Assembly (NCBI GenBank): GCA_033807695.1
Contig: CM066301.1
Span: forward strand, 4,650,001-4,714,000
DNA from: Daedaleopsis sinensis
Lineage: Eukaryota; Basidiomycota; Agaricomycetes; Polyporales; Polyporaceae
DNA: 64,000 bases
Direction: 5' to 3'
Within the stretch, counting starts at the first letter, position 1. Each line of letters starts with the position of its first letter. Both the position numbers and the translations under genes were made by a program. Below, piece after piece: positions 35,949 through 59,249 of the stretch. Below the pieces are notes generated by a model, which saw nothing but the letters and a program-made list of their open reading frames with translations, was not told the DNA's origin and did not search any database.

Positions 35949-36160
35949 GCTGTGCTATTTCGCCGACCTGCCCGGCCACTTATTAGATCTCTGCACCTAC
36001 ACGCATCTTTGTATCATTATAATACACACCCACACACAGCTGCGTGCCAACTTTTTGTGCGATTAGTCTCGGCCCGGTCGACGCGCGCTAGCACTGCCTT
36101 ATTTGGCTCTCGATTTGCTACGCCAGTCGGCGACTTTGAAGATCGATACCGAATATCGTC

Positions 36161-36963: not shown

Positions 36964-37643
36964 CGGTCAATTGCTAGAATCGTGCTCCTCGTGCCGGCCA
37001 AGCAAGCAACCCGTCAGGCAGCTCAAGAGGTGCGTGGAGGCGAAGCTCACCGGTCATTCAATTGCGAGTCGGTGCACGGTGCATCGAGGGGGGCACATGC
37101 ATACGCACCGTCCGCTTGACAGCTGCGGGGCAAGAGTGCGTTTCCGATGCGTTCGAGGACGTGCCGACCGCCTTGCGTTCGGAATTGAAGAGGATCCTGC
37201 GGACAGCGGCTAGCACTGCGCTAAACCCTTCAACCCGATTCGAATTGAGCTCGAGGGCAGGAATAGGACTTACGAGAGGGCAGGCGGTCGTCGCACTGAG
37301 AAGAGTGGGGCAGGGGCGCCCCGGGTACGACGAGGCGGTACGGCGGTGCGAACCTTGAGCTTGAGGCTGTTGATTGTGGCCGACGGCGAGTACGACGGTC
37401 GTGGATTCGCGAGCACTCCTCTGTGTTGATGTGCTGAGGGTGCCCAGAGTGTAAGTGAGCACTGTGAGGACCCGGTGCATTGAAGTCGATGCGAACTGCT
37501 AGAGTTATCAGAGGCTACGTACGGCGAGAAGGAGGCAGTATAATCCCCATGACCGCGCGAAGGACAGTCAGACGACTCGTGAATTTGTAGTAGCGTTGTG
37601 GCTTGGACAAGCTAGGCGCCGAGAAGGTCGGGGTTCGGCAGAA

Positions 37644-37663
37644 GGCGTGGTGAGAACCACGCC
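37644..37663. other. perfect hairpin, 8-bp stem with GAGA loop
   Basis: GGCGTGGT - GAGA - ACCACGCC. It is also present in copy 2 at 48396-48415. In copy 3 the repeat ends inside this loop (59249), which marks it as the breakpoint. Confidence 0.7.
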
Positions 37664-38454
37664 GAGTCGGCAAGGGCCCAGAGAGGGGACCCGCCTGGAT
37701 CGCGGGTCCAGACCCTCCCCGGTCTCCTTCTGGCGACTGCCCACAACATCGCACTGTGCAATGATGAACAGATCCCGGACATCGCAGTGCGGGATGGCGG
37801 GGGGCGAGCTGGACGGCGGGCTCGTCGTCGGGCGCATGCCAGAGGGCTATCCTAGGACGTCGGGAGTAGTCGGAGATCGATAACGGCTGGCCGGTGCAAC
37901 GTGTCCTGGCCTCTCGGGGGTGCGGACGGCGGGACGGAGGAGGAGGACGGGCGAGAAATGAGAGGAATCTTGTTTGCCGGTGGGGAGATCTGGGAGGAGT
38001 TGCGCGGTGCCTGATTGTTTGACTGCGAGGGTTGCGGGGTCCAGACCGCGGTCGACGACGGTCGAGACCCTTCCCATTCCCGGCCACAACACCCATGCGA
38101 GGGCCTGGACCGCGCCGACGCTGTCCAGTGTGAGCTCGTTGGTAGCAGAGTGTACAGAGGTCCAGAGGAGCTCCGGGGGCGGTATGGGATGCTCAAACGC
38201 ACCCGGACGAGCTCAGAGGGATTCAAACCCCGAATGCGAATTTAGGGAGCGACAAAAGAAACAAGCCGGCCGGAGGAGGAAAAGTCGGCGGGGACGGAGG
38301 TGATGGGAAGCCGGATTTGGGTTGGGAGAGAGCCGGATCGGGTTCGGATCTCGGCGAGAAGGGGGAGTCGGGACGAAGACGGTGCTGCAAGGGATATCTT
38401 GAAGAGCTCGCTCTCGAGTGTTCGTCCTTCACCCCTCTTAACAGTCCAGACCAG

Positions 38455-40299
38455 ATGGATAACTCGTCCCAGTATTCGCCGCTCCAGAGGCAGCTCTTCC
38501 CCTCCTCCACCCTCCCGCCTCCTTCCCAATTACACCTGAACTCCTTTCCCCGCAACAACACCCTCCCGCCCATCTCCCATCTCCCCACCTCCTCCCGCTA
38601 CCCGCCCCCGACCTACACACACCCATCGCTCTCCTCCACCGCCTCCCCCCTCTCCGGACACACACTCTCCAACTCATCCACCCTCCCCTGGTCGAATCAG
38701 CGCTCCAGCTCGCGCGACGACCACGTACCCATCCGCCGTCTCTCCGAATCTCGACCAGACCGCGAAATGGCCCGCGACTCATCCCACGACCATCACATGT
38801 CCTCCTCCCATGTCAAGCATGAGCCCGAGGACAGCATGCCATCCACCTCAGACTTCGTCAAGAAGCTCTACAAGTGCGTATCTCATCGCATATGTATCCG
38901 TATATCGCCCTCTGACGCGCCACCCGGCCCACGGAAGGATGCTCGAAGACACCTCGTTCGCGGACGTCGTCGCATGGGGCCCAGGCGGCGACTGCTTCGT
39001 CGTCAAGGACATGAACGAGTTCACAAAGTCCATCCTCCCGCGCATGTTCAAGCACTCGAATTTCGCCTCCTTCGTCCGCCAGCTGAACAAGTACGACTTC
39101 CACAAAGTGCGTACCCCGATCGTCTGCGTATCGCAGCCCCCCCCGCTCGCGTGCTGACGCCCCGCGGCCAGGTCAAGAACACAGACGACAACCAGTTTGG
39201 CGAACACGTGAGTTAGCATTCTTGTCTTCTTTTCACGGTGCTCCTTCTCTTCGAACATGCGCCCGACTCCGCCGCGTAAACGTGCTTGACGCATCGAGGT
39301 ACGACCAGGGGGCCGTCTGCGCAGCGCACGTAGCGCGGGCGACCCCTGCTTCTTTTTCCAGCACAGACTGCGGTCTCTCGATGCTTCACGCCGACGCTCC
39401 CAGCAAGTGCGACTAGCGCACGACTGGCGTTGCGTATGATGCATTGCCAGTTGTCCGGACGGGGTTCAGGCACATCGGTGACCCCCCTCGCGGTTTACTT
39501 GCAGAGCGTCGAGTTTCCTGTGTGACGCACATCGTCGATGCTCTGCCCTGGCTCTGTCGTGTCGACATTCGCGTTGGGCCGATGACGCACAGGTGCGCGT
39601 CATGGATGGACTGCTGGAGGGTATGAGCATATAATCGGCACCCGCGCGAATTCGCCGTCGCTTCCCTTGTCGTCGCGGTTGCACGTACTCGGTGTCGCGC
39701 TCGGTATATGCGCTCCGTTTGCGGGTGTGGGTGCGCATATAGCCTGGCGCGATGTTTTCGTCGACGCGAGCTTCACAATTGTCGACTACTGCTGTTATGC
39801 GCCGTCGTACAGCAGTTGGTGTTCGTCCGACCAGACAGACAGTGTGCGGGCTTGAGAGGGGGTTCGGTATGCTTCGTATGCACTCCTCGGAGCATGAGGT
39901 TAGAGAGTGGATTACCGCACCAGAGACCGACTCGATGTACGCGTTTCGTGGGGCTCTCGCACACTCGAGAGTCTGGACTATCCGTCGAACCGTGCTCCAT
40001 TTCTCTCATAGCGCATCTCGCTCACACGTTGCCCCGCAGAGCTGGACATTCCGCCACCCCGACTTCCACGCCGACCGGCGAGACGCACTTGAGAACATCA
40101 AGCGCAAGGTCCCTGCCGCACGCAAGTCCACGGGGCGCGGGGCGAACTCGCCCAGCCCGTCCTCCGCTGCGACCGTCGAGGTGCTCCAGTCGCAGCTCGA
40201 CCGCATGGCCCGCGACCAGGAGGAGATGGCGGCGCACATCCGCTCCCTCGAGACCAACTACCAGAACGTGCTGTCAGAGATGGTCAACTTCCCACAGAG
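38455..40299 (+). CDS. HSF/Skn7-type transcription factor, N-terminal part (copy 1)
   Basis: Four exons: 38455-38873, 38938-39106, 39172-39207 and 40040-40299. They give about 294 residues before an unresolved 3' end. A Ser/Pro-rich start is followed by the HSF-type DNA-binding domain from residue ~134: '[20 protein letters not shown]', '[20 protein letters not shown]', 'KYDFHK', '[20 protein letters not shown]'. This version, with '[11 protein letters not shown]', resembles Skn7/Prr1 more than Hsf1. A coiled coil follows ('[20 protein letters not shown]'). Skn7 proteins are nuclear regulators of oxidative and wall stress that end in a response-regulator receiver domain. I could not find a receiver domain anywhere downstream in the unit, so this may be a truncated gene. 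Intron 3 is 832 bp, unusually long. A possible donor ends exon 4 (gttggt at 40300). Confidence 0.75.
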
Positions 40300-40596
40300 G
40301 TTGGTTGCCGGTGGCGCCGCGGTATGCGGGTGCGAGTGCGGGGCCGACGCACGCTGGGCGTCGCTGATGGCCGTGACGGGGCGAATTACCGAGCGCAGAA
40401 TTAATGCGGGAGATAGGGAGTGCGCAGGGGCATATAGGTGTCGAGGGCGGGGGCAGGATATGGTGTGGGGTGGGGGACTCGGACAGGGAGCAGCAGTGTG
40501 TACATGGCAGGAAATATATTTTGTGGTGACTCTGCACAGTGCGCGGGAGACGAGCTCGAGTCTGAGCTCGAGGTACGGTACTCTATCTAGTCTACT

Positions 40597-40700
40597 CGAC
40601 ACTCGCCGCACTCGCACTCGCACTCGCACTCCTCCTGCACCCGCACTGGCACTCCTCCTGCACCCGCACTCGCACTCCTCCTGCACCCGCACACTCCACC
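40597..40700. repeat. GCACTC minisatellite, copy 1
   Basis: Runs of the hexamer cgcact and a 27-30 bp higher unit (gcactcctcctgcaccc), about 100 bp long. The matching array in copy 2 (51303-51425) is longer and arranged differently, so it is hypervariable. Confidence 0.7.
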
Positions 40701-41089
40701 CGTGCAGCGATAAGGCTCCCGCTCTAGCTGCACATCGCACCCGTACGCCTCCCGGGCCCGTACTCGCTCGTCGCGACCTGTCGGCGGTGAGTAGACTCGC
40801 CAGCGCCTACATGTCCATATATGGACGGTGATCTCTGATGTTTCCCGACTCGCGCTTCTTGCTTCTGACCACCACGATCTCCGCCGCACGTCATCGCAGG
40901 ACGTGCCCGGACGAGCTTACCGCCCCGAGCCACTTGCACGCTTGCAAGCGACCTGCAAAGCACAGAATGGTGAGTCTCCGGGACCATGCAAGAGACTGAG
41001 GTACTGACCGTTTACGTTCGCATATCAGTTCAAACTTGTTCAGCCGCGAGTCCCTCGCCTCTCGCTCGCTCTCCTTGTTCCTCGACACC

Positions 41090-42018
41090 GTCTCTCGCCG
41101 TCGTCCACCTTGACTGGCCACAGACCGAGCCGACAACTCACAGCCGGCGCGTGCGAACGCCTGACTTCACGCGTCACCGGGTGTCGCTGTCTCAGCACGT
41201 CGACCGCACTTCCTGTCCACAGCGGTCAGTCTCGTCTCAGCCATGAACTGCCATGGCACGTACCCGACCAGGACGTCGCGTCGCCAACACGCCCGCCGTC
41301 ATGCTAAATCTGCTCTGTCCGCTCGCGAACTTTTCCGTTGCGCAGGTGAGCTCTCCCGGATGCGCCCCAAGTACTCACTTCGAGTCCGTCGCCGTCCTTG
41401 TCTCTCGACGCCGTCTCCCGCTTGCCAGCCACCTCATTGTCCATCTCGACGGGCCACAGATCAAGGTCGACGACTCACAACCCCCGCGCGAATGCGAACG
41501 CGCGACGCGTGACGTCACCGGCTGTCGCTCGTGCCGCATGCATGCGACATGTCCCCCGCACCTCTTCCACAGCGGTCAGTATCATCTCAGCCATAAACTG
41601 CCATGGCACGTACCCTACCAGTATGTCGCGTCGCCAACCCGCCAGCCGTCATGCTAAGTAAGCTGAGTCCGCTCGCGAACGTCTCCGTTGCGCAGGTGAG
41701 CTCTCCCGGATGCGCCCCGAGTCCTCACTGCTCCGTCGCCGTCCTCGTATCTCGACGCCGTCTCTCGCTTGCCAGCCACCTCATATCGACGGGCGACAGA
41801 TCAAGGCCGACGACTCACAGCCCCCATGCGAATGCGAACGCGCGACGCGTGACGTCGCCGGACGTCGCTCGCGCGACACGTCCCCCGCACCCTGTGCACA
41901 GCGCTCAGCATCCGAGTCGTCTCCGCCATCAACGGCCATGCCACGTACCTAGACAAGTCGTCGTGTCGCCACCCTGCTATGTCTGCTCTGTCCGCTCACG
42001 AACGTCGCTGCTGTGCAG
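41090..42018 (+). repeat. internal ~340-bp tandem repeat, copy 1
   Basis: Three units, each ending in a phrase like 'ccgttgcgcag' followed by 'gtgagctctc'. These junctions stand at 41346, 41696 and 42019, giving periods of 350 and 323 bp. Shared landmarks are 'ctcgacgggccacagatcaa', 'gaacgcgcgacgcgtgacgt' and 'aactgccatggcacgtaccc'. The first and last units are more diverged than the middle one. Confidence 0.8.
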
Positions 42019-42320
42019 GTGAGCTCTCTCGGAAGCAGACCCTGAGCAGAGCCGCAGTATTACTGCTGATGGCTCTGTCCGATGTCAAGGTACGTACATA
42101 ACTGCGCTAAGTCGCCACTCTCAGACCTCCTGCTTCTCGTACGAAGGTCCACGACGTCCAGGTATGTTCATGTGGCAAGATCATCCTCGATGACCACCGT
42201 TTTGCACGCTGGGAGCACCAGACAGCCTGCTGAGGTTCGAAGTCCCGTAAGTACGCGCTCACTCGAGTTGTTGAGCACATGACAGACCTTCATGTGAGTG
42301 CGAAGAGACCAGGACGTCAG

Positions 42321-42805
42321 CGATGACATTGACCGCGCTCTCATCGCCCGGAATGGCGAGTTGTCCGTGCACGAACATCCTGCGGACCACAGAAGGTAAG
42401 TCGCCGTGAACGCTCGAAAGAAGAACATGACAATTCATGTCCCCGCCATGTGCACCCCGAATCCTACACCGTCCGCGTTGCTCTGCCTCGTTTGGCCCGC
42501 CGGGAATGCTAGTAGATGGTCAGTCAACTGTAATGCTCATGAGGGCGGTGTACATACCTACAGAGAGCGTGACCAGCCTTCGGAAACACAACAGCCGAGC
42601 CATGCGCGATCAACACGGTGCGTACACATCTTCAAACGCTCCCCAATCTGCGTGACACGCCGTCAGCAACAGTCTCGTCCATGAACGAAAGAACGAGGTG
42701 CGTACCTTGCAAAGCACAGCTCTGCATCGCGATCTAACCTTCTTGACTGTGACACAGTACACCGAAGCTGCACAGCTGCTCGCATTGCTCGCCGGCGAGC
42801 ACTGA
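42321..42805 (+). CDS. unrecognised intron-rich coding chain, 3' part (copy 1)
   Basis: Four short exons join in one phase with clean splice sites: 42321-42395, 42564-42617, 42673-42697 and 42758-42805. The product includes 'DDIDRALIARNGELSVHEHP', 'ERDQPSETQQPSHARSTR', 'LVHERKNE' and ends 'YTEAAQLLALLAGEH' at TGA 42803-42805. The last two introns are 55 and 60 bp, the usual size here. Upstream exons could not be fixed; an 8-nt exon 42281-42288 and an exon in the frame 'SSSMTTVLHAGSTRQPAEVR' (42180-42246) fit the phase. No family is recognised. The same exons are preserved in the second large repeat. Confidence 0.35.
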
Positions 42806-45048
42806 GAGCTACCAGAACGCGATGGTCGGCGTAACGAGGCCTCGGGAATCTTCGACAGAGTACGGAGAGGTTGCCGTCCGTGCGAAGGCGGCTGTTGGTC
42901 CTGAGAGTGGAGGGCATCGAGCTGGCTTGCCAGATGAGACGTACAAACGCGTCCTCGACGCGTCGACACGTCCGGGAGGCCTGGAGAGACCGCCGGGTTA
43001 TGCTCTGCTGTCGGTGAGGACAATAGTCTGTCATCCCCACTGGGCTGAGCGCGTCAGGACTGAACGCAGGCGTGTAGGCAGAGAGTAGCACGCTCACGGA
43101 GCTGGAGGACGTGCAGTCATGACTGTTTTGTTCTGGCATGTTCGGAGAGGTGGAGAGGTGGAAATGCGACAGGTTCGAGACGCGTGGGGGTATCTGCGAG
43201 GGAATTGTTGATGTTCTGGGTGTGTGAGTGTAGCAGGGAGTAGAAAGAGAACACGAACAGCCTCCCGGGTGTCTGGGCCCACGTTCCAGTCGCCCAATGA
43301 CCGAAGACCCCGGGGGTAAAATTTACTGTTCGGATCCATGCATAATGAGACTCTCCGTGCCGCTTTACTTTCCCACCGCGGCACAACCCATCTGCTGCAT
43401 GGTCGTTCATCCTCAGCTCCAGTCTGCTGTATGTCTAAGTCACGATATATTTCATCTGCCATGCTTGCAGTCGAGCAGGAGAGGAATCTGCGCACAAGGA
43501 GAGATATCTCTTCGTGCGCAAGGGTTCCTACCCTGCTCAGTTCCGGTCCGTACACCGTCCGAAAGCTTCCATGCAGTGCTTGCAGCCGAACATGGTCGCT
43601 ATGCCGTCCACCCTCCGAGGACACCGCTGAATGATATTATGTACAGGTCTCGAGTTTCCAGGCGACACTGCACTCTCCATGGGACAGTAGTGCTCGACAC
43701 ATCCCCAGCACACAGAGTATGATATCCAGCAGCAACCAAGGTCTCTGGGCAGTGGATATGGTTGAAAGGAATGCAGGCAGGCGGCACATCCGCATCAGTC
43801 AAGAATATCTTTGACTCCACGGTGCCCGGGAACGCCGGGTCTAGAACTTTCCGCCCTCTGGGCGGAAAGCACATCCTGTTCGCGTCCATGCCTGAACAAG
43901 TTACAGGCGCGGAGTGACGTCGACACTCACATGGAGCATCCGGCTGAGGAGTGCCGCCGCACCTCATGAGGCAGCCCATCGGCAGCTTCTCCGCAGCGGC
44001 CTGCATGCAGAATTGCTCCTGCATCCAGCAGAAATTGGCTTATACACCTGTCCAGTCCCCTGCAACAGAGATATGCTGTGAATTCGGGAGTAACTCAGGA
44101 ATTAAAGCTAGTACTATACGGTACACTACTAGTACTATGTCTGTCGAAACATGGCTGTTACACATTGCCTTTTGCCTACAGGAATATGGATAAAAATCCT
44201 TCGTGTACTCCAGATGCGCACACATACTAGTAGTCTTGCAGCAGGACAGAATGTCCAGCACAGCGGCGCATGCAGGAGCGGCGGCGGACACTCGAATGGG
44301 AAGTGGCGCGGACGAGCGCCAGTCGAGCTCGGATAGCGCGGTGTGCCAAATGCGGATAGTCGTACTCAACGCCGAGCGTTTATCTCTCTCTTCCTCCGCG
44401 ATCTCTGGCAGAAACTGACACAGTCCGCTCAGCACGCTGAATCCCGGGATACAAACCTACAAATCGGACTATGCTACAGCCTGAAGAGCTGAAATGATGT
44501 AGAGTTGTACTATTCTGCACGTAAGTCTCGTATATTAGCGTTTGCATCTAAAACTGCGAGATTACTGATCACTGAGTGATTTCTACAGAACCATGCACCT
44601 GAAACTAGCCAGAGAAAGCCCTGCGTCTAGCGCCAGTGAATCTCCGGTACAATCTGATCTCTTCGGCCACTCCCGACTGCACAGAGACAGCCAGAACACT
44701 GCAAACGGCCTTATCCACGCGGGACCCTGTCCTCGAGCCTCATCCGCCCCAAAATACGACAGCATCGTGACAGGAATTGTGCCAGACACTAGCCGAGCGC
44801 CCACGCCACACTTCCATGCTCATTTGGGCTCGGAACTGCGGCACACCCGTGCACACGCGCAGGGTCTTGAGTCTTCCCCTCCTCCCCATCCCCCGTGCCG
44901 CATCCTGGTTGGTCCCGCCTCCCGCTCGCTCGAGCATGCGTGGGAAGTGCGTCTCCATCACGTTTACACGCGTGACCGTGGGGTCTGCGCACGGGCCAGG
45001 CTGGAGAGATACAAGTACCTCTGCAGCCTCCTCGAGTCCGACCAGCAC

Positions 45049-45130
45049 TCTCTCTCCCCCTCTCCCCTCTCCCCTCTCCCCTTCCCCCTCTCCCCTCAGC
45101 CCTTTCCCCTCACTTCCCCCTCACTCTCAT
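45049..45130. repeat. CCCCTCT-type pyrimidine minisatellite, copy 1
   Basis: A pure-pyrimidine tract built on ctctcccct. In copy 2 (55770-55850) it is about one unit longer. It lies in a long frame that is open in copy 1 but broken in copy 2. Confidence 0.7.
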
Positions 45131-47670
45131 ACACAATCAACATCGCCGTTGCACCTCGCTGCCGACGTCCTCTCTCGCCGTCCCCGCCGCCTGTCCCGCC
45201 CATCCCGCTCACTCATGCTCGCTTCCCCGCCATGCCGATCGTATTGGCATGGATCACCGACCGCTACATGGTACATCTGCCGCCCATATCCTGTCGATTC
45301 CGCCCTGTACTGACCGGACTTTTCGCATTTGAGCAGATGCCGGTGTGCCTGCATGAACGCATGCGAGGCACGGTCCTGCTGCAGGCTCACGCATCGTGAC
45401 ACATGCGATTCAAGACGCTACGGACGGTACGTACCGCTCCGTATCCGAGTCCATATGCACTTCATCTAACGAATTCGTCTATGTCCAGGTCCAGATCTCA
45501 GTCCGGCGCGTGCACGCGTCGCGTCCGGCGCACTCGTCGGTCTGCTAGAGCGTCGCAACGGTACGTCGCGCCCCTCGCGCCATCTCAGGAACATCTCCCC
45601 GGACGCTGACCTCCTCATTTGCAGGCTCGCGGGACCAGTCCCCCGTACAGAGACGTCGCATCCGGCGCACTCGAAGTCGCCGGCGTAGCAGAACGCTGCC
45701 GCAAGGGTGCCAGTGAGTAGCGCTAGCGCTTCGCGTTCGAGTCTCAACATCTCCCCGGACGTTGACGTTGTTCCGTCTAGGTTCTCGCGCGGTTCCGAGC
45801 GTGAGCGGGGCTCGCGCGCGGGCATTCCGTCTGCCAGGTACGTGCGGCCCCATCCCCGTCCGCAGACTCTGACCCGGAGACCGTGCTGACATGTCCCGGC
45901 AGGTCGTCTTTCTCGTCTCGAACAGCCATGCCGGCACAGACCGACTCGACGTGCACGCCATGCCGGTCCCAAGCGAGTGAGTTGGTATCGAGTTCTCCGG
46001 CCCGGCTTCTTGTCGCGAGTTCTGACTAGTGTTTGTGGGTCACTGCCAGGAGGTGTCCGGGTGCGCACTGCGCGTCCCGGACGAGTCCGCAGCCGGCTCT
46101 GAGAGTCGAGTACACTGTACGAACCTCCCGCCGTGCCAGCTCGCATCGAGCTGACATCTATCTGCGCTCGCGATCGGACCCACCACTGGCAGCGCCGCAC
46201 GCAACGTAAGTGTACCCGTCCGTGTCTTGTCAGGCCCGAATCTCACTGACCACTGCAAAACTCAGACAGGACATCCAAGTCGCGCAGGGTGGCGAACCGA
46301 TCATGTATATATTGTTTACGCGTGCTCATACATAGTGTACATACGGTATGTAGTGCCGTGCGCACTCTCCCGGGTCCTCCGCTGACCTGCTCCCCGACAG
46401 CGTTGTTCGGGGACACACTCCTACACACTCCCGTCATCCGGCCGTCCGTCGCGCCGCTCGCACAGACGGTTCCGGCCGCCAGGCACGCGTCCGGGGCGTC
46501 CCCGCGGCGCCGCTGTCGCGAGACGGAGACATCAGCGACAGCCGCAGCTCGAGGCTGCACGTGTGCACATGGGCGGGCAGGTCTCCCCCGCCGGGGAAGG
46601 CTCGTCGGGTGCTCGTGGCCGTCGAGACGAGCTGTGGCGAGGAGCCTGAAGCCGCGGAGCGTGCGCGTGCGCGTTGAGCATGCACCCCAGCCCGTGGCTG
46701 GAAGCTGCCTGTACACAGCTGGCCGGCGGGCCCGACGCCGTCGTCCGCAAGGCCAGCTGAACTGCGCACGAGTCGCCGTCCGACGTCGGGCACGGCCGCC
46801 GTGCGCCCTCGACGAGCGGCGGGCGGCGGGCGGCGGCGGGTCGGGGGCGATGCGGCGCACATGTGCTGCGGTGTCCCGTAGGCTACTTAGAGCGACGCGT
46901 TCCGTGTGCTGTACGCCGATGAGACGCGCTTTGCGCGATGAGTGCCCGCTCCTTTTCGCCGCCGGCGCGAAGAGTCCGCGGCCGCGCCCAGGAGACGGCC
47001 GTCCCGCACACCCGGAGCGTGCCTACGACGGACGCACGGGTGTCCGGGGCGCGGAGGGGCGTGCTTCGTGAGTTCGACCTCGGTGCCGCCGCCGAGCTGC
47101 CCCGCCTGCGTGTTCACGCGTTCCACGGTCCGGACAGCGTCGGCAGTGTGTGCACGACGGTCGTCGAAGGTGTCTGTGTCGTAAGTTCGGGCAGAGCGGC
47201 GGTCTTGGAATGTGCACAGGGCCGAATTTCGAACATCGTGCTTCGGGCCTGTGCACACCTCGGCGACGGCCTACAACGTCTACGGATGCGTGCTGCATGG
47301 TGTGCGCAGCGCGGCGGGTAGTGGTTCGTACGGAGGAACGGACTCACCTCGAATCCCCATGAAATCGCTATGAACGCGATTTTCGCGACCTGCTCGGATC
47401 AGCCCGAGACCGGGCGCGCTCGGTGCGAAATGGTGACCGCATTCTGAAGATATGGGTTAGCACGAGAGAGCACGAGAGACGGATGAGATATGTCGGATCT
47501 TCCGACGTACCAGCCAGGGATCAGGGCGCGGCGGCGAAGCACAACGGCGGAGAGCACCGTCGGATGCCGTCGGAGAGTCGTTCAGACTCGTATCGAGTGG
47601 TCACGTCGCGTTCCGGGCGGGCAGGAGAGAGACGGTGACGGGCGAGTCGCACGGGCGGGAAAGAGCAATG

Positions 47671-47694
47671 AAATCGGCTTGTTTGAGCCGATTT
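47671..47694. other. perfect hairpin near the unit junction, copy 1
   Basis: AAATCGGCT, a 6-nt loop, then AGCCGATTT: a 9-bp perfect stem about 36 bp before the copy 1/copy 2 junction. It is repeated identically at 58449-58472. Confidence 0.65.
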
Positions 47695-48395
47695 TGAAAG
47701 TCGTCCGGACGTCGCGCGATTGGGAGGGATTGTTCCCCATGCCGGCCAAGCAAGCAGCCCGTCGACGTCAGTCAGCTCATGATCGAGAGGTGCTTGGAGG
47801 CGAAGCTCACCGGTCATTCAATTGCGAGTCGGTGCACGGTGCATCGAGGGGGGCACATGCATATGCACCGTCCGCTTGACAGCTGCGGGGCAAGAGTGCG
47901 TTTCCGATGCGTTCGAGGACGTGCCCACCGCCTTGCTTGCGTTCGGAATTGAAGAGGATCCTGCGGACAGCGGCTAGCACGCTAAACGCTTCAACCCGAT
48001 TCGAATTGAGCTCGAGGGCAGGAATAGGACTTACGAGAGGGCAGGCGGTCGTCGCACTGAGAAGAGTGGGGCAGGGGCGCCCCGGGTACGACGAGGCGGT
48101 ACGGCGGTGCAAACCTTGAGCTTGAGGCTATTGATTGTGGCCGACGGCGAGTACGACGGTCGTGGATTCGCGAGCACTCCGTGTTGATGCTGAGGGTGCC
48201 CAGAGTGTAAGTGAGCACTGTGAGGACCCGGTGCATTCAAGTCGATGCGAACTGCTCGAGTTATCAGAGGCTACGGCGAGAAGGAGGAAGTATAATCCCC
48301 ATGACCGCGCGAAGGACAGTCAGACGACTCGTGAATTTGTAGTAGCGTTGTGGCTTGGACAAGCTAGGCGCCGAGAAGGTCGGGGTTCGGCAGAA

Positions 48396-48415
48396 GGCGT
48401 GGTGAGAACCACGCC
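48396..48415. other. GGCGTGGT/ACCACGCC hairpin, copy 2
   Basis: Identical to the hairpin at 37644-37663. It serves as the intact reference for the broken third copy. Confidence 0.7.
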
Positions 48416-49206
48416 GAGTCGGCAAGGGCCCAGAGAGGGGACCCGCCTGGATCGCAGGTCCAGACCCTCCCCGGTCTCCTTCTAGCGATTGCCCACAACA
48501 TCGCACTGTGCAATGATGAACAGATCCCGGACATCGCAGTGCGGGATGGCGGGGGGCGATCGAGCTGGACGGCGGGCTCGTCGTCGGGCGCGTGGAGGGC
48601 TATCCTAGGACGTCGGGAGTAGTCGGAGATCGATAACGGCTGGCAGGTGCAACGTGTCCTGGGCTCTCGGGGGTGCGGACGGCGGGACGGAGGAGGAGGA
48701 CGGACGAGAAATGAGAGGAATCTTGTTTGCCGGTGGGGAGATCTGGGAGGAGTTGCGCGGTGCCTGATTGTTTGACTGCGAGGGTTGCGGGGTCCAGACC
48801 GCGGTCGACGACGGTCGAGACCGTTCCCATTCCCGGCCACAACACCCATGCGAGGGCCTGGACCGCGCCGACGCTGTCCAGTGAGCTCGTTGGTAGCAGA
48901 GTGTACAGAGGTCCAGAGGAGCTCCGGGGGCGGTATGGGATGCTCAAACGCACCCGGACGAGCTCAGAGGGATTCAAACCCCGAATGCGAATTTAGGGAG
49001 CGACAAAAGAAATAAGCCGGCCGGAGGAGGGAGTAAACGGCGGGGACGGAGGTGATGGGAAGCCGGATTTGGGTTGGGAGAGAGCCGGATCGGGTTCGGA
49101 TCTCGGCGAGAAGGGGGAGTCGGGACGAACACGGTGCTGCAAGGGATATCTTGAAGAGCTCGCTCTCGAGTGTTCGTCCTTCACCCCTCTTAACAGTCCA
49201 GACCAG

Positions 49207-51002
49207 ATGGATAACTCGTCCCAGTATCCGCCGCTCCAGAGGCAGCTCTTCCCCTCCTCCACCCTCCCGCCTCCTTCTCAATTACATCTGAACTCCTTTC
49301 CCCGCAACAACACCCTCCCGCCCATCTCCCATCTCCCCACCTCCTCCCGCTACCCGCCCCCGACCTACACACACCCCTCCCTCTCCTCCACCGCCTCTCC
49401 CCTCTCTGGCCACACACTTTCCAACTCATCCACCCTCCCCTGGTCGAATCAGCGCTCCAGCTCGCGCGACGACCACGTACCCATCCGCCGTCTCTCCGAA
49501 TCTCGACCAGAACGCGAAATGGCCCGCGACTCATCCCACGACCATCACATGTCCTCCTCCCATGTCAAGCATGAGCCCGAGGACAGCATGCCATCCACCT
49601 CAGACTTCGTCAAGAAGCTCTACAAGTGCGTATCTCACCGCATATACATCCGTCTACCGCCCTCTGACGCGCCACCCGGCCCTCCGAAGGATGCTCGAAG
49701 ACACCTCGTTCGCGGACGTCGTCGCATGGGGCCCAGGCGGCGACTGCTTCGTCGTCAAGGACATGAACGAGTTCACAAAGTCCATCCTCCCGCGCATGTT
49801 CAAGCACTCGAATTTCGCCTCCTTCGTCCGCCAGCTGAACAAGTACGACTTCCACAAAGTGCGTACCCCGATCGTCTGCGTATCGCAGCCCCCCTCGCGT
49901 GCTGCGTGCTGACGCCCCGCCGCCAGGTCAAGAACACAGACGACAACCAGTTTGGCGAACACGTGAGTTAGCATTCGTATCTTCTTTTCACGGTCCTCCT
50001 TCTCTTCGAACATGCGCCCGACTCCGCCGCGTAAACGTGCTTGACGCATCGAGGTACGACCAGGGGGCCGTCTGCGCAGCGCACGTAGCGCGGGCGACCC
50101 CTGCTTCTTTTTCCAGCACAGACTGCGGTCCCTCGATGCTTCACGCCGACGCCAGTTGTCCGGACGGGGTTCAGGCACATCGGTGACCTCCCCCACGGAC
50201 TACCTGCAGAACGTCGAGTTTCGTACATCGTCGATGCTCTGCCCTGGCTCTGTCGTGTCGACATTCGCGTTGGGCCGATGACGCACAGTAGCGCGTCATG
50301 GATGGACTGCTGGAGGGTATGAGCATATAATCGGCACCCGCGCGAATTCGCCGTCGCTTCCCTTGTCGTCGTGGTCGCACGCTCGGTATATGCGCCGCTC
50401 GGTATATGCGCTCCGTTTGCGGGTGTGGGTGCGCATATAGCCTGGCGCGATGTTTTCGTCGACGCGAGCTTCACAATTGTCAACTACTGCTGTTATGCGC
50501 CGTCGTACAGCAGTTGGCGTTCGTCCGACCAGACAGACAGTGTGCGGGCTTGAGAGGGGGCTCGGTATGCTTCGTATGCACTCCTCGGAGCATGAGGTTA
50601 GAGAGTGGATTACATTACCGCACCAGAGACCGACTCGATGTACGCGTTTCGTGGGGCTCTCGCACACGCGAGAGTCTGGACTATCCGTCGAACCGTGCTC
50701 CATTTCTCTCATAGCGCATCTCGCTCACACGTTGCCCCGCAGAGCTGGACATTCCGCCACCCCGACTTCCACGCAGACCGGCGAGACGCACTTGAGAACA
50801 TCAAGCGCAAGGTCCCTGCCGCACGCAAGTCCACGGGGCGCGGGGCGAACTCGCCCAGCCCGTCCTCCGCTGCGACCGTCGAGGTGCTCCAGTCGCAGCT
50901 CGACCGCATGGCCCGCGACCAGGAGGAGATGGCGGCGCACATCCGCTCCCTCGAGACCAACTACCAGAACGTGCTGTCAGAGATGGTCAACTTCCCACAG
51001 AG
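49207..51002 (+). CDS. HSF/Skn7-type transcription factor, N-terminal part (copy 2)
   Basis: Exons 49207-49625, 49690-49858, 49927-49962 and 50743-51002 have the same lengths as copy 1 (419, 169, 36 and 260 nt). Only a few residues differ, all outside the DNA-binding core ('SQYSPLQ' to 'SQYPPLQ', 'SRPDRE' to 'SRPERE'). The introns have drifted more: intron 3 is 780 bp against 832 bp. The putative donor after exon 4 reads TT in place of GT, so if that site is used in copy 1 it is lost here. As in copy 1, no receiver domain is found downstream. Whether either copy is expressed cannot be told from sequence. Confidence 0.7.
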
Positions 51003-51302
51003 TTTGGTTGCCGGTGGCGCCGCAATACGTGGGTGCGAGTGCGGGGCCGACGCACGCTGGGCGTCGCTGATGGCCGTGACGGGGCGAATTACCGAGCGCA
51101 GAATTAATGCGGGAGATAGGGAGTGCGCAGGGGCATATAGGTGTCGAGGGCGGGGGCAGGATATGGTGTGGGGTGGGGGACTCGGACAGGGAGCAGCAGT
51201 GTGTACATGGCAGGAAATATATTTTGTGGTGACTCTGCACAGTGCGCGGGAGACGAGCTCGAGTCTGAGCTCGAGGTACGGTACTCTATCTAGTCTACTC
51301 GA

Positions 51303-51425
51303 CACTCGCCGCACCCGCACCCGCACCCTCGCACTCGCACTCGCACTCGCACTCGCACTCACACTCGTACTCCTCCTGCACTCGCGCCCGCACTCCTCCT
51401 GCACCCGCACTCGACACTCCGGACC
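51303..51425. repeat. GCACTC minisatellite, copy 2
   Basis: Expanded relative to copy 1, with a longer pure run of gcactc hexamers and several gcaccc variants. Confidence 0.7.
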
Positions 51426-51829
51426 TCGCACACTCCACTCGTGCAGCAACAAGGCTCCCGCTCTAGCTGCACATCGCACCCGTACGCCTCCCGGGCCCGT
51501 ACTCGCTCGTCGCGACCTGTCGGCGGTGAGTAGACTCGCCAGCGCCTACATGTCCATATATGGACGGTGATCTCTGATGTTTCCCGACTCGCGCGTCTTG
51601 CTTCTGACCACCACGATCTCCGCCGCACGTCATCGCAGGACGTGCCCGGACGAGCTTACCGCCCCGAGCCACTTGCACGCTTGCAAGCGACCTGCAAAGC
51701 ACAGAATGGTGAGTCTCCGGGACCATGCAAGAGACTGAGGTACCGACTTACGTTCGCATATCAGTCCAAACTTGTTCAGCCGCGAGTCCCTCGCCTCTCG
51801 CTCGCTCTCCTTGTCCCTCGACACCGTCT

Positions 51830-53525: not shown

Positions 53526-55769
53526 GAGCTACCAGAACGCGATGGTCGGCGTAACGAGGCCTCGGGAACCTTCGACAGAGTACGGAGAGGTTGCCGTCCG
53601 TGCGAAGGCGGCTGTTGGTCCTGAGAGTGGAGGGCATCGAGCTGGCTTGCCAGATGAGACGTACAAACGCGTCCTCGACGCGTCGACACGTCCGGGAGGC
53701 CTGGAGAGACCGCCGGGTTATGCTCTGCTGTCGGTGAGGACAATAGTCTGTCATCCCCACTGGGCTGAACGCGTCAGGACTGAACGCAGGCGTGTAGGCA
53801 GAGAGTAGCACGCTCACGGGGCTGGAGGACGTGCAGTCATGACTGTTTTGTTCTGGCATGTTCGGCGAGGTGGAGAGGTGGAAATGCGACAGGTTCGAGA
53901 CGCGTGGGGGTATCTGCGAGGGAATTGTTGATGTTCTGGGTGTGTGAGTGTAGCAGGGAGTAGAAAGAGAACACGAACAGCCTCCCGGGTGTCTGGGCCC
54001 ACGTTCCAGTCGCCCAATGACCGAAGACCCCGGGGGTAAAATTTACTGTTCGGATCCATGCATAATGAGACTCTCCGTGCCGCTTTACTTTCCCACCGCG
54101 GCACAACCCATCTGCTGCATGGTCGTTCATCCTCAGCTCCAGTCTGCTGTATGTCTAAGTCAGGATATATTTCATCTGCCATGCAGTCGAGCAGGAGAGG
54201 AATCTGCGCACAAGGAGAGAGATCTCTTCGTGCGCAAGGGTTCCTACCCTGCTCAGTTCCGGTCCGTACACCGTCCAAAAGCTTCCATGCAGTGCTTGCA
54301 GCCGAACATGGTCGCTATGCCGTCCACCCTCCGAGGACACCGCTGAATGATATTATGTACAGGTCTCGAGTTTCCAGGCGACACTGCACTCTCCATGGGA
54401 CAGTAGTGCTCGACACATCCCCAGCACACAGAGTATGATATCCAGCAGCAACCAAGGTCTCTGGGCAGTGGATATGGTTGAAAGGAATGCAGGCAGGCGG
54501 CACATCCGCATCAGTCAAGAATATCTTTGACTCCACGGTGCCCGGGAACGCCGGGTCTAGAACTTTCCGCGCTCTGGGCGGAAAGCACATCCTGTTCGCG
54601 TCCATGCCTGAACAAGTTACAGGCGCGGAGTGACGTCGACACTCACATGGAGCATCCGGCTGAGGAGTGCCGCCGCACCTCATGAGGCAGTCCATCGGCG
54701 GCTTCTCTGCGGCGGCCTGCATGCAGAATTGCTCCTGCATCCAGCAGAAATTGGCTCATACACCTGTCCAGTCCCCTGCAACAGAGATAATGCTGTGAAT
54801 TCGGGAGTAACTCAGGAATTAAAGCTAGTACTATACGGTACACTACTAGTACTATGTCTGTCAAAACATGGCTGTTACACATTGCCTTTTGCCTACAGGA
54901 ATATGGATAAAAATCCTTCGTGTACTCAAGATGCGCACACATACTAGTAGTCTTGCAGCAGGACAGAATGTCCAGCACAGCGGCGCATGCAGGAGCGGCG
55001 GCGGACACTCGAATGGGAAGTGGCGCGGACGAGCGCCAGTCGAGCTCGGATAGCGCGGTGTGCCAAATGCGGATAGTCGTACTCAACGCCGAGCGTTTAT
55101 CTCTCTCTTCCTTCCTCCGCGATCTCTGGCAGAAACTGACACAGTCCGCTCAGCACGCTGAATCCCGGGATACAAACCTACAAATCGGACTATACTACAG
55201 CCTGAAGAGCTGAAATGATGTAGAGTTGTACTATTCTGCACGTAAGTCTCGTATATTAGTGTTTGCATCTAAAACTGCGAGATTACTGATCACTGAGTGA
55301 TTTCTACAGAACCATGCACCTGAAACTAGCCAGAAAAAGCCCCGCGTCTAGCGCCAGTAACTCTCCGGTACGATCTGATCTCTTCGGCCACTCCCGACTG
55401 CACCGAGACGGCCAGAACGCTGCAAACGGCCTTATCCACGCGGGACCCTGTCCTCGAGCCTCATCCGCCCCAAAATACGACAGCATCGTGACAGGAATTG
55501 TGCCAGACACTAGCCGAGCGCCCACGCCACACTTCCATGCTCATTTGGGCTCGGATCCTGCGGCACACCCGTGCACACGCGCAGGGTCTTGAGTCTTCCC
55601 CTCCTCCCTATCCCCCGTGCCGCATCCTGGTTGGTCCCGCCTCCCGCTCGCTCGAGCATGCGTGGGAAGTGCGTCTCCATCACGTTTACACGCGTGACCG
55701 TGGGGTCTGCGCACGGGCCAGGCTGGAGAGATACAAGTACCTCTGCAGCCTCCTCGAGTCCGACCAGCA

Positions 55770-55850
55770 CTCTCTCTCCCCCTCTCCCCTCTCCCCTCTC
55801 CCCTCTCCCCTTCCCCCTCTCCCCTCAGCCCTTTCCCCTCACTTCCCCCT
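55770..55850. repeat. CCCCTCT-type pyrimidine minisatellite, copy 2
   Basis: About ten bases longer than in copy 1. Two frames split here what is one long frame in copy 1. Confidence 0.7.
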
Positions 55851-58448
55851 CACTCTCATACACAATCAACATCGCCGTTGCACCTCGCTGCCGACGTCCT
55901 CTCTCGCCGTCCCCGCCGCCTGTCCCGCCCATCCCGCTCACTCATGCTCGCTTCCCCGCCATGCCGATCGTATTGGCATGGATCACCGCCCGCTACATGG
56001 TACGTCTGCCGCCAATATCCTGTCGATTCCGCCCTGTACTGACCGGACTTTTCGCATTTGAGCAGATGCCGGTGTGCCTGCATGAACGCATGCGAGGCAC
56101 GGTCCTGCTGCAGGCTCACGCATCGTGACACATGCGATTCAAGACGCTACGGACAGGTACGTACCGCTCCGTATCCGAGTCCATACGCACTTCATCTAAC
56201 GAATTCGTCTATGTCCAGGTCCAGATCTCAGTCCGGCGCGTGAACGCGTCGCGTCCGGCGCACTCGTCGGTCTGCTAGAATGTCGCAACGGTACGTCGCG
56301 CCCTTAGCGCCATCTCAGGAACATCTCCCCGGATGCTGACCTCCTCATTTGCAGGCTCGCGGGACCAGTCCCCCGTACAGAGACGTCACATCCGGCGCAC
56401 TCGAAGTCGCCGGCGTAGCAGAACGCTGCCGCAAGGGTGCCAGTGAGTAGCGCTTCGCGTTCGAGTCTCAACGTCTCCCCCGGGACGTTGACGTTGTTCC
56501 GTCTAGGTTCTCGCGCGGTTCCGAGCGTGAGCGGGGCTCGCGCGCGGGCATTCCGTCTGCCAGGTACGTGCGGCCCCATCCCCGTCCGCAGACTCTGACC
56601 CGGAGACCGTGCTGACATGTCCCGGCAGGTCCGTCACCGTCGTCGTTCCCGTCTCGAACAGACATGCCGGCACAGACCGACTCGACGTGCACGCCATGCC
56701 AGTCCCAAGCGAGTGAGTTGGTATCGAGTTCTCTGGCCCGGCTTCTTGTCGCAAGTTCTGACTAGTGTTTGTGGGTCACTGCCAGGAGGTGTCCGGATGC
56801 GCACTGCGCGTCCCGGACGAGTCCGCAGCCGGCTCTGAGAGTCGAGTACACTGTACGAACCTCCCGCCGTGCCAGCTCGCATCGAGCTGACATCTATCTG
56901 CGCACGCGATCAGACCCACCACTGGCAGCGCCGCACGCAACGTAAGTGTACCCGTCCGTGTCTTGTCAGGCCCGAATCTCACTGACCACTGCAAAACTCA
57001 GACAGGACATCCAAGTCGCGCAGGGTGGCGAACTCAACATGTATATATTTAGTACGCGTGCTCATACATAGTGTACATACGGTATGTAGTGCCGTGCGCA
57101 CTCTCCCGGGTCCTCCGCTGACCTGCTCCCCGACAGCGTTGTTCGGGGACACACTCCTACACACTCCCGTCATCCGGCCGTCCGTCGCGCCGCTCGCACA
57201 GACGGTTCCGGCCGCCAGGCACGCGTCCGGGGCGTCCCCGCGGCGCCGCTGTCGCGAGACGGAGACATCAGCGACAGCCGCAGCTCGAGGCTGCACATGT
57301 GCGGGCAGGTCTCCCCCGCCGGGGAAGGCTCGTCGGGTGCTCGTGGCCGTCGAGACGAGCTGTGGCGAGGAGCCTGAAGCCGCAGAGCGTGCGCGTGCGC
57401 GTGCGCGTTGAGCATGCACCCCAGCCCGTGGCTGGAAGCTGCCTGTACACAGCTGGCCGGCGGGCCCGACGCCGCCGTTCGTCGTCCGCAAGGCCAGCTG
57501 AACTGCGCACGAGTCGCCGTCCGACGTCGGGCACGGCCGCCGTGCGCCCTCGACGAGCGGCGGGCGGCGGGCGGCGGCGGGTCGGGGGCGATGCGGCGCA
57601 CATGTGCTGCGGTGTCCCGTAGGCTACTTAGAGCGACGCGTCCGTGTGCTGTACGCCGATGAGACGCGCTTTGCGCGATGAGTGCCCGCTCCTTTTCGCC
57701 GCCGGCGCGAAGAGTCCGCGGCCGCGCCCAGGAGACGGCCGTCCCGCACACCCGGAGTGTGCCTACGACGGACGCACGGGTGTCCGGGGCGCGGAGGGGC
57801 GTGCTTCGTGAGTTCGACCTCGGTGCCGCCGCCGAGCTGCCCCGCCTGCGTGTTCACGCGTTCCACGGTCCGGACAGCGTCGGCAGTGTGTGCACGACGG
57901 TCGTCGAAGGTGCCTGTGTCGCCGTCGATCGCACCTGGGGACCGGGTCCGGCTGTGTCGTAAGTTCGAGCTGAGCGGCGGTCTTGGAATGTGCACAGGGC
58001 CGAATTTCGAACATTGTGCTTCGGGCCTGTGCACACCTCGGCGACGGCCTACAACGTCTACGGATGCGTGCTGCATGGTGTGCGCAGCGCGGCGGGTAGT
58101 GGTTCGTACGGGGGGACGGACTCACCTCGAATCCCCATGAAATCGCTATGAACGCGATTTTCGCGACCTGCTCGGATCAGCCCGAGACCGGGCGCGCTCG
58201 GTGCGAAATGGTGACCGCATTCTGAAGATATGGGTTAGCACGAGGGAGGACGAGAGACGGATGAGATATGTCGGATCTTCCGACGTACCAGCCAGGGATC
58301 AGGGCGCGGCGGCGAAGCACAACGGCGGAGAGCACCGTCGGATGCCGTCGGAGAGTCGTTCAGACTCGTATCGAGTGGTCACGTCGCGTTCCGGGCGGGC
58401 AGGAGAGAGACGGTGACGGGCGAGTCGCACGGGCGGGAAAGAGCAATG

Positions 58449-58472
58449 AAATCGGCTTGTTTGAGCCGATTT
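58449..58472. other. perfect hairpin near the unit junction, copy 2
   Basis: AAATCGGCT, loop TGTTTG, AGCCGATTT, the same as at 47671-47694. Here it lies about 85 bp before the copy 2/copy 3 junction. Confidence 0.65.
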
Positions 58473-58557
58473 TGAAAGTCGTCCGGACGTCGCGCGATTG
58501 GGAGGGATGCTAGAGACTGTTCGTGGGCTGTTTGTAGACGTAGTCTGCCGGGGGGAA

Positions 58558-59249
58558 ACGGTCAATTGCTGGAGTTGTGTTCCCCATGCCGGCCAAGCAA
58601 GCAACCCGTCGACGTCAGTCAGCTCATGATCGAGAGGTGCTTGGAGGCGAAGCTCACCGGTCATTCAATTGCAAGTCGGTGCACGGTGCATCGAGGGGGG
58701 CATACATGCATACGCACCGTCCGCTTGACAGCTGCGGGGCAAGAGTGCGTTTCCGATGCGTTCGACGACGTGCCTACCGCCTTGCTTGCGTTCGGAATTG
58801 AAGAGGATCCTGCGGACAGCGGCTAGCACGCTAAACCCTTCAACCCGATTCGAATTGAGCTCGAGGGCAGGAATAGGACTTACGAGAGGGCAGGCGGTCG
58901 TCGCACTGAGAAGAGTGGGGCAGGGGCGCCCCGGGTACGACGAGGCGGTACGGCGGTGCGAACCTTGAGCTTGATTGTGGCCGACGTCGAGTACGACGGT
59001 CGTGGATTCGCGAGCACTCCGTGTTGATGCTGAGGGTGCCCAGAGTGTAAGTGAGCACTGTGAGGACCCGGTGCATTCAAGTCGATTCGAAGTTACTGCT
59101 CGAGGTATCAGAGGCTACGGCGAGATGGAGGAAGTATAATCCCCATGACCGCGCGAAGGACAGTCAGACGACTCGTGAATTTGTAGTAGCGTTGTGGCTT
59201 GGACAAGCTAGGCGCCGGGAAGGTCGGGGTTCGGCAGAAGGCGTGGTGA
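58558..59249 (+). repeat. large tandem repeat, copy 3, truncated
   Basis: Repeats the first ~690 bp of the unit and then stops. The match to copy 2 holds through 'ggcagaaggcgtggtga' (59249), after which copy 2 continues gaaccacg but copy 3 continues cacggcgg. The break is in the loop of the GGCGTGGT hairpin, just before the Helitron-related sequence. Confidence 0.9.

What the first reader, a model, noticed from the sequence alone, without database searches (positions are those of the whole stretch)
36964..59249. Recent 10.8-kb head-to-tail segmental array with 2.06 units
Two full copies and one truncated copy, about 97-99% identical by eye, form a tandem array. It is not rDNA. It could be a copy-number variable locus, collapsed or expanded in other strains.
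Basis: seen in the sequence. Interest (0 to 1): 0.75.

Follow-up and report, generated by a model that had tools for sequence, protein, structure and literature searches.

The report
Repeating gene-fragment-plus-noncoding-cassette arrays in a fungus
The duplicated 10.8-kb stretch is real and is one of many similar arrays in this wood-decay fungus, each joining part of a different host gene to the same kind of long, apparently non-protein-coding cassette, with a cassette-free copy of the gene segment at the end of those checked.

Summary
The tandem array is confirmed: two units (36964-47730, 47731-58557) plus a third start (58558-59249); 225 substitutions in 10,647 aligned bases. The reading as an isolated recent duplication is incomplete. 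Each unit is a composite: X (0.7 kb), the promoter region and first half of SKN7 (2.6 kb, 97% identical to an intact SKN7 137 kb away), and M, a 7.4-kb cassette without detectable coding signal. M-type units occur at 18 or more loci (at least 61 units) on nine contigs of a Polyporaceae genome near Daedaleopsis. Genes recognised at 13 loci all differ; 12 lie in M's orientation, one opposite. At 10 of 10 further loci tested, the segment before M recurs after the last M without M; at 7 it continues the interrupted gene. Rule: [host segment + M]n + host segment. M keeps a core and intron signals while its exons drift without codon periodicity. The truncated SKN7 frames look constrained (9 silent, 2 replacement changes; neutral P = 2.4e-4). 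This is the structure expected from single-crossover integration of a circle carrying host segment plus M, then unequal exchange; that origin is inferred. Transcription, effect and other species are untested.

The parts
36964..37645 (+). X, copy 1: upstream part of the repeated host segment; its left flank is not repeated at the other copies
37646..40292 (+). SKN7', copy 1: promoter region and first half of SKN7 (HSF DNA-binding domain and coiled coil), about 97% identical to the intact gene at C2:4846945 onward
38455..40831 (+). truncated SKN7 reading frame, copy 1, exons 38455-38873, 38938-39106, 39172-39207, 40040-40831; 471 aa; tail after 40292 is M sequence; no receiver domain
   Evidence: splice sites by comparison with the parent copy, not by RNA
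40293..47730 (+). M, copy 1: apparently noncoding cassette related to units at 17 or more other loci
40367..40450 (+). start motif of M (diverged window version): stop codons and an A/T-rich stretch, then a TATA-like stretch; recognisable in 9 of 12 array units compared; a 35-base pattern of it is found at 6 of 18 loci (19 places, 18 exact), not in the window
   Evidence: reading as terminator and promoter is inference
41102..42033 (+). minisatellite inside M, units of about 337 bp
   Evidence: the TRF row is for copy 2, 51935-52594
44340..45050 (+). core of M, the block best conserved across the 15 units of 9 loci aligned, promoter-like, with an intron-like stretch at 44521-44588
   Evidence: promoter role and this intron are read by eye
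45271..46400 (+). predicted spliceosomal introns downstream of the core: 45271-45336 (by eye; donor GTACAT in copy 1), 45427-45488, 45561-45624, 45842-45902, 46206-46265, 46346-46400
46943..47730 (+). 3' block of M; its counterpart has one gap column in about 900 bp between the C10 and C7 arrays; hairpin-like inverted repeats at 47361-47383 and 47670-47695 (by eye)
47731..48397 (+). X, copy 2 (first 20 bp missing)
48398..50995 (+). SKN7', copy 2
49207..51570 (+). truncated SKN7 reading frame, copy 2, exons 49207-49625, 49690-49858, 49927-49962, 50743-51570; 483 aa
50996..58557 (+). M, copy 2; 58509-58557 is the end of M that is missing in copy 1
58558..59249 (+). X, copy 3: terminal copy without M
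59249..59392 (-). 144 bp identical, inverted, to the sequence just upstream of the breakpoint in the intact SKN7 locus: probable scar of a rearrangement

Best explanation
The array belongs to a family of composite tandem arrays with the rule [host segment + M]n followed by the host segment without M. Shown from sequence: M is a cassette of about 7-8 kb (measured in the window and C10) without detectable coding signal; related units lie at 18 or more loci; a different host gene is found beside M at each of the 13 loci where one was recognised; the host segment is repeated directly on both sides of M, and the copy after the last M lacks M (10 of 10 loci tested besides the window). Usually M is joined inside or just behind the front part of a gene in M's own orientation; one locus (C9 0.78-0.82 Mb, a protein kinase) is the other way round. 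In the window the gene is SKN7, whose intact copy is now 137 kb away. Inferred origin: a circular molecule carrying host segment plus M (or a replication-based insertion that yields the same joint) integrated by homologous recombination, which leaves truncated copy - M - full copy and so spares the gene; dimers or unequal exchange gave arrays and homogenised them. Inferred expression: the truncated copies keep their promoter and stop near the start of M, and M makes its own spliced noncoding RNA towards the next gene copy. The truncated SKN7 copies would make a DNA-binding protein without receiver domain, a possible competitor of full SKN7. Which of these outputs, if any, is selected is not known.
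For: Related units on nine contigs, mostly 8.6-11.9 kb apart (exceptions 14.2 kb in C2b and 33 kb in C10). Direct repeat with M-less terminal copy at 10 of 10 loci examined for it besides the window; probes of 120-1,532 bases of M and the start motif find nothing in the 5.5-6.5 kb fetched after each. At 7 of the 10 the terminal copy continues the interrupted gene, judged by eye (C2b, C12, C6, C10b, C9 single, C2 single, C7); in C2b and C12 only after 0.6-0.9 kb without a clear frame. Gene copies exceed M cores by one in C9 (4 vs 3) and C10 (5 vs 4, one M-gene pair lying 33 kb off). The first copy has another left flank while the host segment is shared (4 of 4: C9 single, C2 single, window, C10). 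12 of 13 recognised genes lie in M's orientation. M noncoding: C10 vs C7 exon mismatches 46/48/54 of 182 positions each, no periodicity and mostly non-triplet gaps. Splicing: introns 83% vs exons 73% identical between C10 and C7; 3 of 4 scanned introns match in C9 single vs C12, 8 of 10 within the C6 locus. Truncated SKN7 under constraint: dN/dS 0.04-0.08; 9 silent vs 2 replacement changes on the two copy branches, P = 2.4e-4; truncated vs full at four other loci dN/dS 0.20, 38 silent vs 19 replacement.
Against: The window's terminal copy is only X; the intact SKN7 is 137 kb off, so there the rule holds only if a later rearrangement parted them. The kinase at C9c lies opposite to M, so 'always a gene front in M's orientation' is false. 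For eight loci frames were first listed on M's strand only; a later Pfam check of 10 opposite-strand frames (C2b 2, C6 2, C12, C10b, C7, C9b, C2 single and C9c 1 each) found no domain, but this is not exhaustive. No gene was recognised at C11 and C8; at C9b the break lies near the gene's end. The C10 Ras-like gene looks complete in each unit (by eye). C8 vs C5 keep only 2 of 6 scanned introns, and the C10 minus strand is also rich in predicted introns (8). The C10/C7 introns were chosen after seeing the alignment; of seven, two donors are weakened and the last acceptor does not align. In C12 a 1-base gap parts truncated and full frames. M has no fixed end sequence, so how it reaches new genes is unexplained. 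No conserved RNA structure. No transcript, small-RNA, read or second-strain data. Loci C5, C6b, C8, C8 single and C10c were not tested for the terminal copy; C9c was found by the start motif only, its core was not seen.
Confidence: 0.57

Rival explanations
1. Ordinary segmental tandem duplication: a 10.8-kb piece of the chromosome was duplicated by unequal exchange, with no wider meaning.
For: The window alone fits it.
Against: Does not explain M-type units at 18 or more loci, the different gene at each recognised locus, or the M-less terminal copies.
Confidence: 0.08
2. M is a non-autonomous transposon of rolling-circle (Helitron-like) or other gene-capturing type; the repeated host segments are captured flanks and the arrays are rolling-circle concatemers.
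For: Captured gene parts, head-to-tail arrays, dispersed loci with local matches of 63-85% between loci; hairpin-like repeats near the 3' end; one locus with the gene in the other orientation.
Against: No shared end sequence seen at the joint among 7 start and 5 end junctions; an M-less copy of the host segment beside it each time tested; no transposase or replicase domain in 20 of the 67 frames of 150 or more residues of four units; the start pattern was found at arrays only, but this pattern misses diverged forms such as the window's.
Confidence: 0.22
3. The arrays are natural co-suppression or paramutation-like devices: repeated gene fronts plus M trigger small-RNA or chromatin control of the intact gene behind them.
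For: Repeat transgene arrays trigger RNAi-dependent co-suppression in the basidiomycete Cryptococcus (abstract of PMC3420925); the arrays sit directly upstream of the M-less gene copy.
Against: No small-RNA data; CpG observed/expected in M and four other units (1.08-1.14) is like the flanks (1.03-1.08), so no methylation-type decay; protein-level constraint on SKN7' is not expected from an RNA-only role.
Confidence: 0.15
4. Assembly artefact: two nuclear haplotypes of a dikaryon were joined head to tail.
For: 2% divergence resembles haplotype divergence; reads not available.
Against: Third copy, junction deletion, 9-unit array, same architecture at other loci.
Confidence: 0.04

Closest known systems
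Macrosatellites such as DXZ4 (PMC6985041, abstract read; other DXZ4 papers seen only in the listing)
   Same: Head-to-tail units of kilobases, not obviously coding, alike within the array
   Different: Here the recognised loci each have their own host gene in the unit and end in a copy without M; many loci per genome
Single-crossover (Campbell-type) integration of a circular plasmid carrying a gene fragment (recalled)
   Same: Gives truncated copy - insert - full copy, with arrays when multimers integrate
   Different: Insert is an apparently noncoding, intron-bearing cassette at many genes, not a laboratory vector; no circle has been seen
Helitrons and Pack-MULEs (recalled)
   Same: Carry pieces of host genes, can form arrays
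   Different: No shared ends or transposase domains found in what was examined; a cassette-free gene copy is kept next to the element
Transgene-array co-suppression in Cryptococcus (PMC3420925, abstract read) and quelling in Neurospora (recalled and named in that abstract)
   Same: Repeated gene copies as possible trigger for control of the intact gene
   Different: Natural arrays, with M between the copies; no silencing shown
SKN7 response regulators of Polyporales
   Same: HSF-type domain and coiled coil nearly unchanged in the truncated copies
   Different: Receiver domain missing, replaced by an M-encoded tail of about 180-190 residues

Membership tests
Macrosatellite | tandem head-to-tail units longer than 1 kb | tested here: met
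Macrosatellite | copy number varies between individuals | not testable with these tools
   one genome only; 1 to 9 units between loci
Helitron / gene-capturing transposon | fixed terminal sequence at element ends | tested here: not met
   7 start and 5 end junctions show no common sequence at the joint (by eye); a conserved motif lies 30-75 bases inside the start at most of them
Helitron / gene-capturing transposon | transposase or Rep/helicase in some member | tested here: inconclusive
   20 of 67 frames of 4 units: none; autonomous relatives elsewhere not sought
Campbell-type integrated circle | direct repeat of the host segment, one copy next to the insert truncated, the other full | tested here: met
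   direct repeat and M-less copy 10 of 10; continuing gene visible 7 of 10
Campbell-type integrated circle | free circular form exists | not testable with these tools
   no reads
Spliced long noncoding RNA gene | no coding constraint | tested here: met
   (pairs C5/C8 and C10/C7)
Spliced long noncoding RNA gene | conserved splice signals | tested here: inconclusive
   C10/C7 seven introns, two weakened donors and one unaligned acceptor; C9 single/C12 3 of 4, C6 pair 8 of 10, C8/C5 2 of 6
Spliced long noncoding RNA gene | transcript observed | not testable with these tools
   no RNA data
SKN7 response regulator | HSF-type DNA-binding domain | tested here: met
   (first exon piece over the cut-off, second piece 18.9 bits, under it)
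SKN7 response regulator | receiver domain | tested here: not met
   frames end in an M-encoded tail
rDNA or other known RNA gene | Rfam match | tested here: not met

The most novel reading that the evidence does not exclude
A new class of selfish or domesticated genetic element: an apparently noncoding, spliced cassette that spreads by homologous integration with captured host segments, sparing the host gene, amplifies itself in place, and may have been recruited to make truncated proteins (here a receiver-less SKN7) and noncoding RNA upstream of the intact gene.
Probability: 0.35. Interest if true: 0.88.

Novelty: new variant of a known kind. Interest (0 to 1): 0.75.

Why it matters
It links three usually separate things, tandem macrosatellites, candidate noncoding RNA loci and partial gene duplication, in one repeated architecture at many genes of one fungus. 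If the cassette spreads while sparing its target gene, it is an unrecognised route of gene-fragment capture; if the truncated products or the noncoding RNA act on the intact gene, it is a regulatory layer that protein-based annotation would miss. I saw no description of it in the listings of ten paper searches; three of these were aimed at the organism or at analogues, only open-licence papers are held, and apart from two abstracts no paper was opened.

Tried and rejected
rDNA, tRNA or known RNA genes: none (one search used the bacterial setting of ARAGORN). Phage records: no match. IMG/VR: one core pattern, exact matches only, 0. Coding potential of M: frames alike in all six readings, no periodicity; a 363-residue frame of the C10 3' block scored no homologue at E 0.001 among 5,413 candidates. 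Conserved RNA structure: mean z 0.03 (3' block, 50 windows, lowest -2.6) and -0.45 (core, 56 windows); two core windows at -12.4 and -3.1 have fold energies of only -0.6 and I take them as artefacts. Centromere reading: dropped, several loci on one contig. Methylation- or RIP-type decay: none. Idea that M's introns host small RNAs: dropped, short introns and no Rfam hit. Purely neutral truncated copies: rejected for SKN7', but recurrent exchange with the full gene could also purge replacements.

Gene names: from Pfam over the cut-off HSF (10), Ras/Roc (63), GH47 and RING-H2 (64), Polysacc_lyase_14 and protein kinase (97), AAA (98); under the cut-off F-box-like and PUF (98). By eye only, i.e. 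recalled: ABC transporter (C12), GH5 glucanase (C6), PC-esterase-like (C7), S9-type hydrolase (C2 single), and spg1/Tem1 for the Ras-like gene; Pfam gave nothing for the frames of the first four of these loci that were sent (97, 98).

Full report
OBSERVATION. The array exists as described. Copy 1 is 36964-47730, copy 2 47731-58557, and a third start runs 58558-59249. Substitutions number 225 in 10,647 aligned columns, with 40 listed gaps. The internal junctions are not identical: the second holds 49 bp (58509-58557) that, by eye, align with the continuation of the same sequence in other arrays, so the first has lost 49 bp of M and 20 bp of X.

ORGANISM. The window is G000:C2:4650001-4714000 of a 51.6-Mb, 24-contig genome. 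An F-box-like frame at 27341-28792 is 89% identical to Daedaleopsis nitida, and a 461-residue piece of the intact SKN7 locus is 69-73% identical to Trametes, Lentinus and Dichomitus proteins. The genome is therefore most likely a Polyporaceae wood-decay fungus near Daedaleopsis; the species is not known.

ANATOMY. Pfam finds an HSF-type DNA-binding domain split over exons in copy 1. A copy that reads on into a response-regulator receiver is at C2:4.847-4.851 Mb. Window 37646-40292 and 48398-50995 are about 97% identical to its promoter region and first half and then break off inside the coding sequence. Between SKN7' and the next X lies M. The sequence left of X, 33229-37212 in pieces, resembles C6:4.093-4.094 Mb. 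After X copy 3, 144 bp are identical but inverted to the sequence just in front of the SKN7 breakpoint; the intact SKN7 follows 137 kb downstream on the same strand.

THE FAMILY. Searches of the genome with the unit, with other units and with the core show related units: C2 0.58-0.63 Mb (C2b, 5 units), C2 2.006 (C2 single), window (2), C5 3.63-3.70 (7), C6 3.456-3.466 (C6, 2), C6 3.728-3.737 (C6b, 2), C7 4.086-4.140 (6), C8 2.52-2.605 (9), C8 3.153 (C8 single), C9 0.78-0.82 (C9c, 5), C9 0.997 (C9 single), C9 1.964-1.975 (C9b, 2), C9 2.24-2.26 (C9, 3), C10 1.11-1.13 (C10b, 3), C10 2.32-2.37 (C10, 4), C10 3.266-3.277 (C10c, 2), C11 2.67-2.69 (3), C12 0.807-0.827 (3): 18 loci on nine contigs and 61 units. 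These are lower bounds: at most 40 candidates were scored per search. C9c is counted from the start motif only. Neighbouring units are mostly 8.6-11.9 kb apart; one gap of 14.2 kb (C2b) and one of 33 kb (C10) occur. In an alignment of the core with flanks, units of one locus are 91-99% identical (6 pairs) and units of different loci 53-75% (99 pairs, median 57%).

THE RULE. Pfam finds a different gene before M in four units: HSF/SKN7 (window), Ras-like (C10), RING-H2 (C9), GH47 (C5). Nine further loci give nine more different genes, part by Pfam, part by eye: polysaccharide lyase 14 (C2b), ABC-transporter-like (C12), GH5-like (C6), Puf-like (C10b), F-box-like (C9b), PC-esterase-like (C7), AAA ATPase (C9 single), S9-like hydrolase (C2 single), protein kinase (C9c). 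Twelve of the 13 lie in M's orientation; the kinase lies opposite. I had first listed frames on M's strand only for most of these; a check of ten opposite-strand frames found no domain, the opposite strand at C9c gave the kinase, and C11 gave nothing on either strand. After the first units I predicted that behind the last M a copy without M should follow. It held at 10 of 10: C2b, C12, C6, C10b, C9 single and C2 single, C9c, C11, C7, C9b. Neither M probes (120-1,532 bases; short for C9c, C7 and C6) nor the start motif match in the fetched terminal pieces. The main matching pieces are 93.4-99.8% identical; C10b has also a 556-base piece at 86.9%. In the two single loci, where the repeat is host sequence only, it is 1.6 and 2.5 kb long; in arrays the match can include the end of the preceding M. 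At seven of the ten the terminal copy continues the interrupted gene, judged by eye, in C2b and C12 after 0.6-0.9 kb without a clear frame; at C9b, C11 and C9c this is not clear. In C9 gene copies exceed M cores 4 to 3, in C10 5 to 4 with one M-gene pair 33 kb away. The window fits if its terminal SKN7 was later parted from X by the rearrangement that left the 144-bp inverted scar.

WHAT M IS. No codon periodicity and mostly non-triplet gaps in C5/C8 and C10/C7 comparisons; no Pfam domain in the frames of M examined; no Rfam family. A core (44340-45050) is present in all 15 units of 9 loci aligned, with an intron-like stretch of about 68 bases (by eye). Plus-strand intron predictions exceed shuffled sequence in all seven units scanned (window unit 9 against 3.3, C10 9 against 3.2, C7 10 against 2.2, C9 9 against 3.3, C8 6 against 2.7, C5 7 against 3.0, C2b 5 against 1.0), though a few of these lie in host genes and in C10 the minus strand has 8 too. 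Between C10 and C7, introns are 350 of 423 (83%) and exons 398 of 546 (73%) identical, exon mismatches 46/48/54 by codon position; these introns were picked on the alignment. With the general scan 3 of 4 introns match in C9 single/C12, 8 of 10 within C6 and 2 of 6 in C8/C5. The 3' block has one gap column in about 900 bp between C10 and C7, no codon pattern and no detectable RNA structure. Near the gene joint a motif with stop codons and AATAAA, followed by a TATA-like stretch, is recognisable in 9 of 12 units compared; a 35-base pattern of it occurs 19 times, 18 exactly, at 6 loci, reversed control 0. Fourteen of the 19 lie at loci known before, five form the new C9c array. Terminator and promoter roles are inferred.

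SELECTION. SKN7' reading frames are open in both units (471 and 483 residues). Over 873 coding bases without indels: parent-copy 1 7 silent/1 replacement, parent-copy 2 10/1, copy 1-copy 2 9/2. Polarised on three sequences, the copies' branches carry 9 silent and 2 replacement changes; P = 2.4e-4 under neutrality. Silent divergence (3.0-4.2%) is like intron divergence (3.1-4.0%). Truncated versus full copies at four other loci: 38 silent, 19 replacement, dN/dS 0.20 over 9 segments, one with a 1-base gap. Either the truncated proteins are used, or repeated exchange with the intact gene purges replacements.

MECHANISM. The joint truncated copy - M - full copy, with the first copy in its own left flank and the last without M, is that of single-crossover integration of a circle carrying host segment plus M. 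Replication-based template switching could give the same joint. Junctions show no common end sequence (7 starts, 5 ends), which speaks against a classical transposase. That the clear cases are gene fronts (7 of 7) is expected if inner fragments would break the gene; the kinase of C9c shows that this is not the only arrangement. Arrays then grow and homogenise by unequal exchange; in the window, M (1.2% over 42030-47730) is more alike than the SKN7 intron (3.6%), consistent with conversion or constraint in M. Expression and regulation are inference.

LIMITS. One genome, no reads, no RNA, no relatives. Terminal copies were tested at 10 of the 17 non-window loci; C9 and C10 were judged by copy counts; C5, C6b, C8, C8 single and C10c remain. 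Literature: ten searches of open papers; two abstracts read, the rest seen as listings only.

Noticed in passing
32637-33816 and 34759-35950: Another local direct duplication, 91% identical; a frame in the first piece has a weak NAD(P)-binding match (under the cut-off). Related sequence lies at C6:4.093-4.094 Mb (L004).
   Followed up: partly
59249-59392: 144 bp identical and inverted to the region just upstream of the SKN7 breakpoint in the intact locus; with the 137 kb between them this suggests a rearrangement.
   Followed up: partly
41102-42033 and 51779-52753: Minisatellite of about 337-bp units inside M, diverging faster between copies (4.9%) than the rest of M.
   Followed up: partly
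39208-40039: The SKN7 third intron is unusually long (about 780-830 bp) and differs by a 50-bp gap between the two units.
   Followed up: no
L033 6000-8090 (C10 array): A Ras-like gene, by eye like Spg1/Tem1, was found by DNA search only at this locus (5 copies).
   Followed up: partly
L062 1061-2434 minus (C9 0.79 Mb): Protein kinase gene opposite to M: the one exception to the common orientation.
   Followed up: partly
L035 7340-7706: A 370-bp repeat, 77-81% identical at places on C6, C7, C9 and C11, sits inside the C5 unit.
   Followed up: no
L055 (C12 terminal copy) and L054 (C2b terminal copy): C12: 1-base gap against the truncated copy in the first exon. Both: 0.6-0.9 kb without a clear frame before the rest of the gene.
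   Followed up: no
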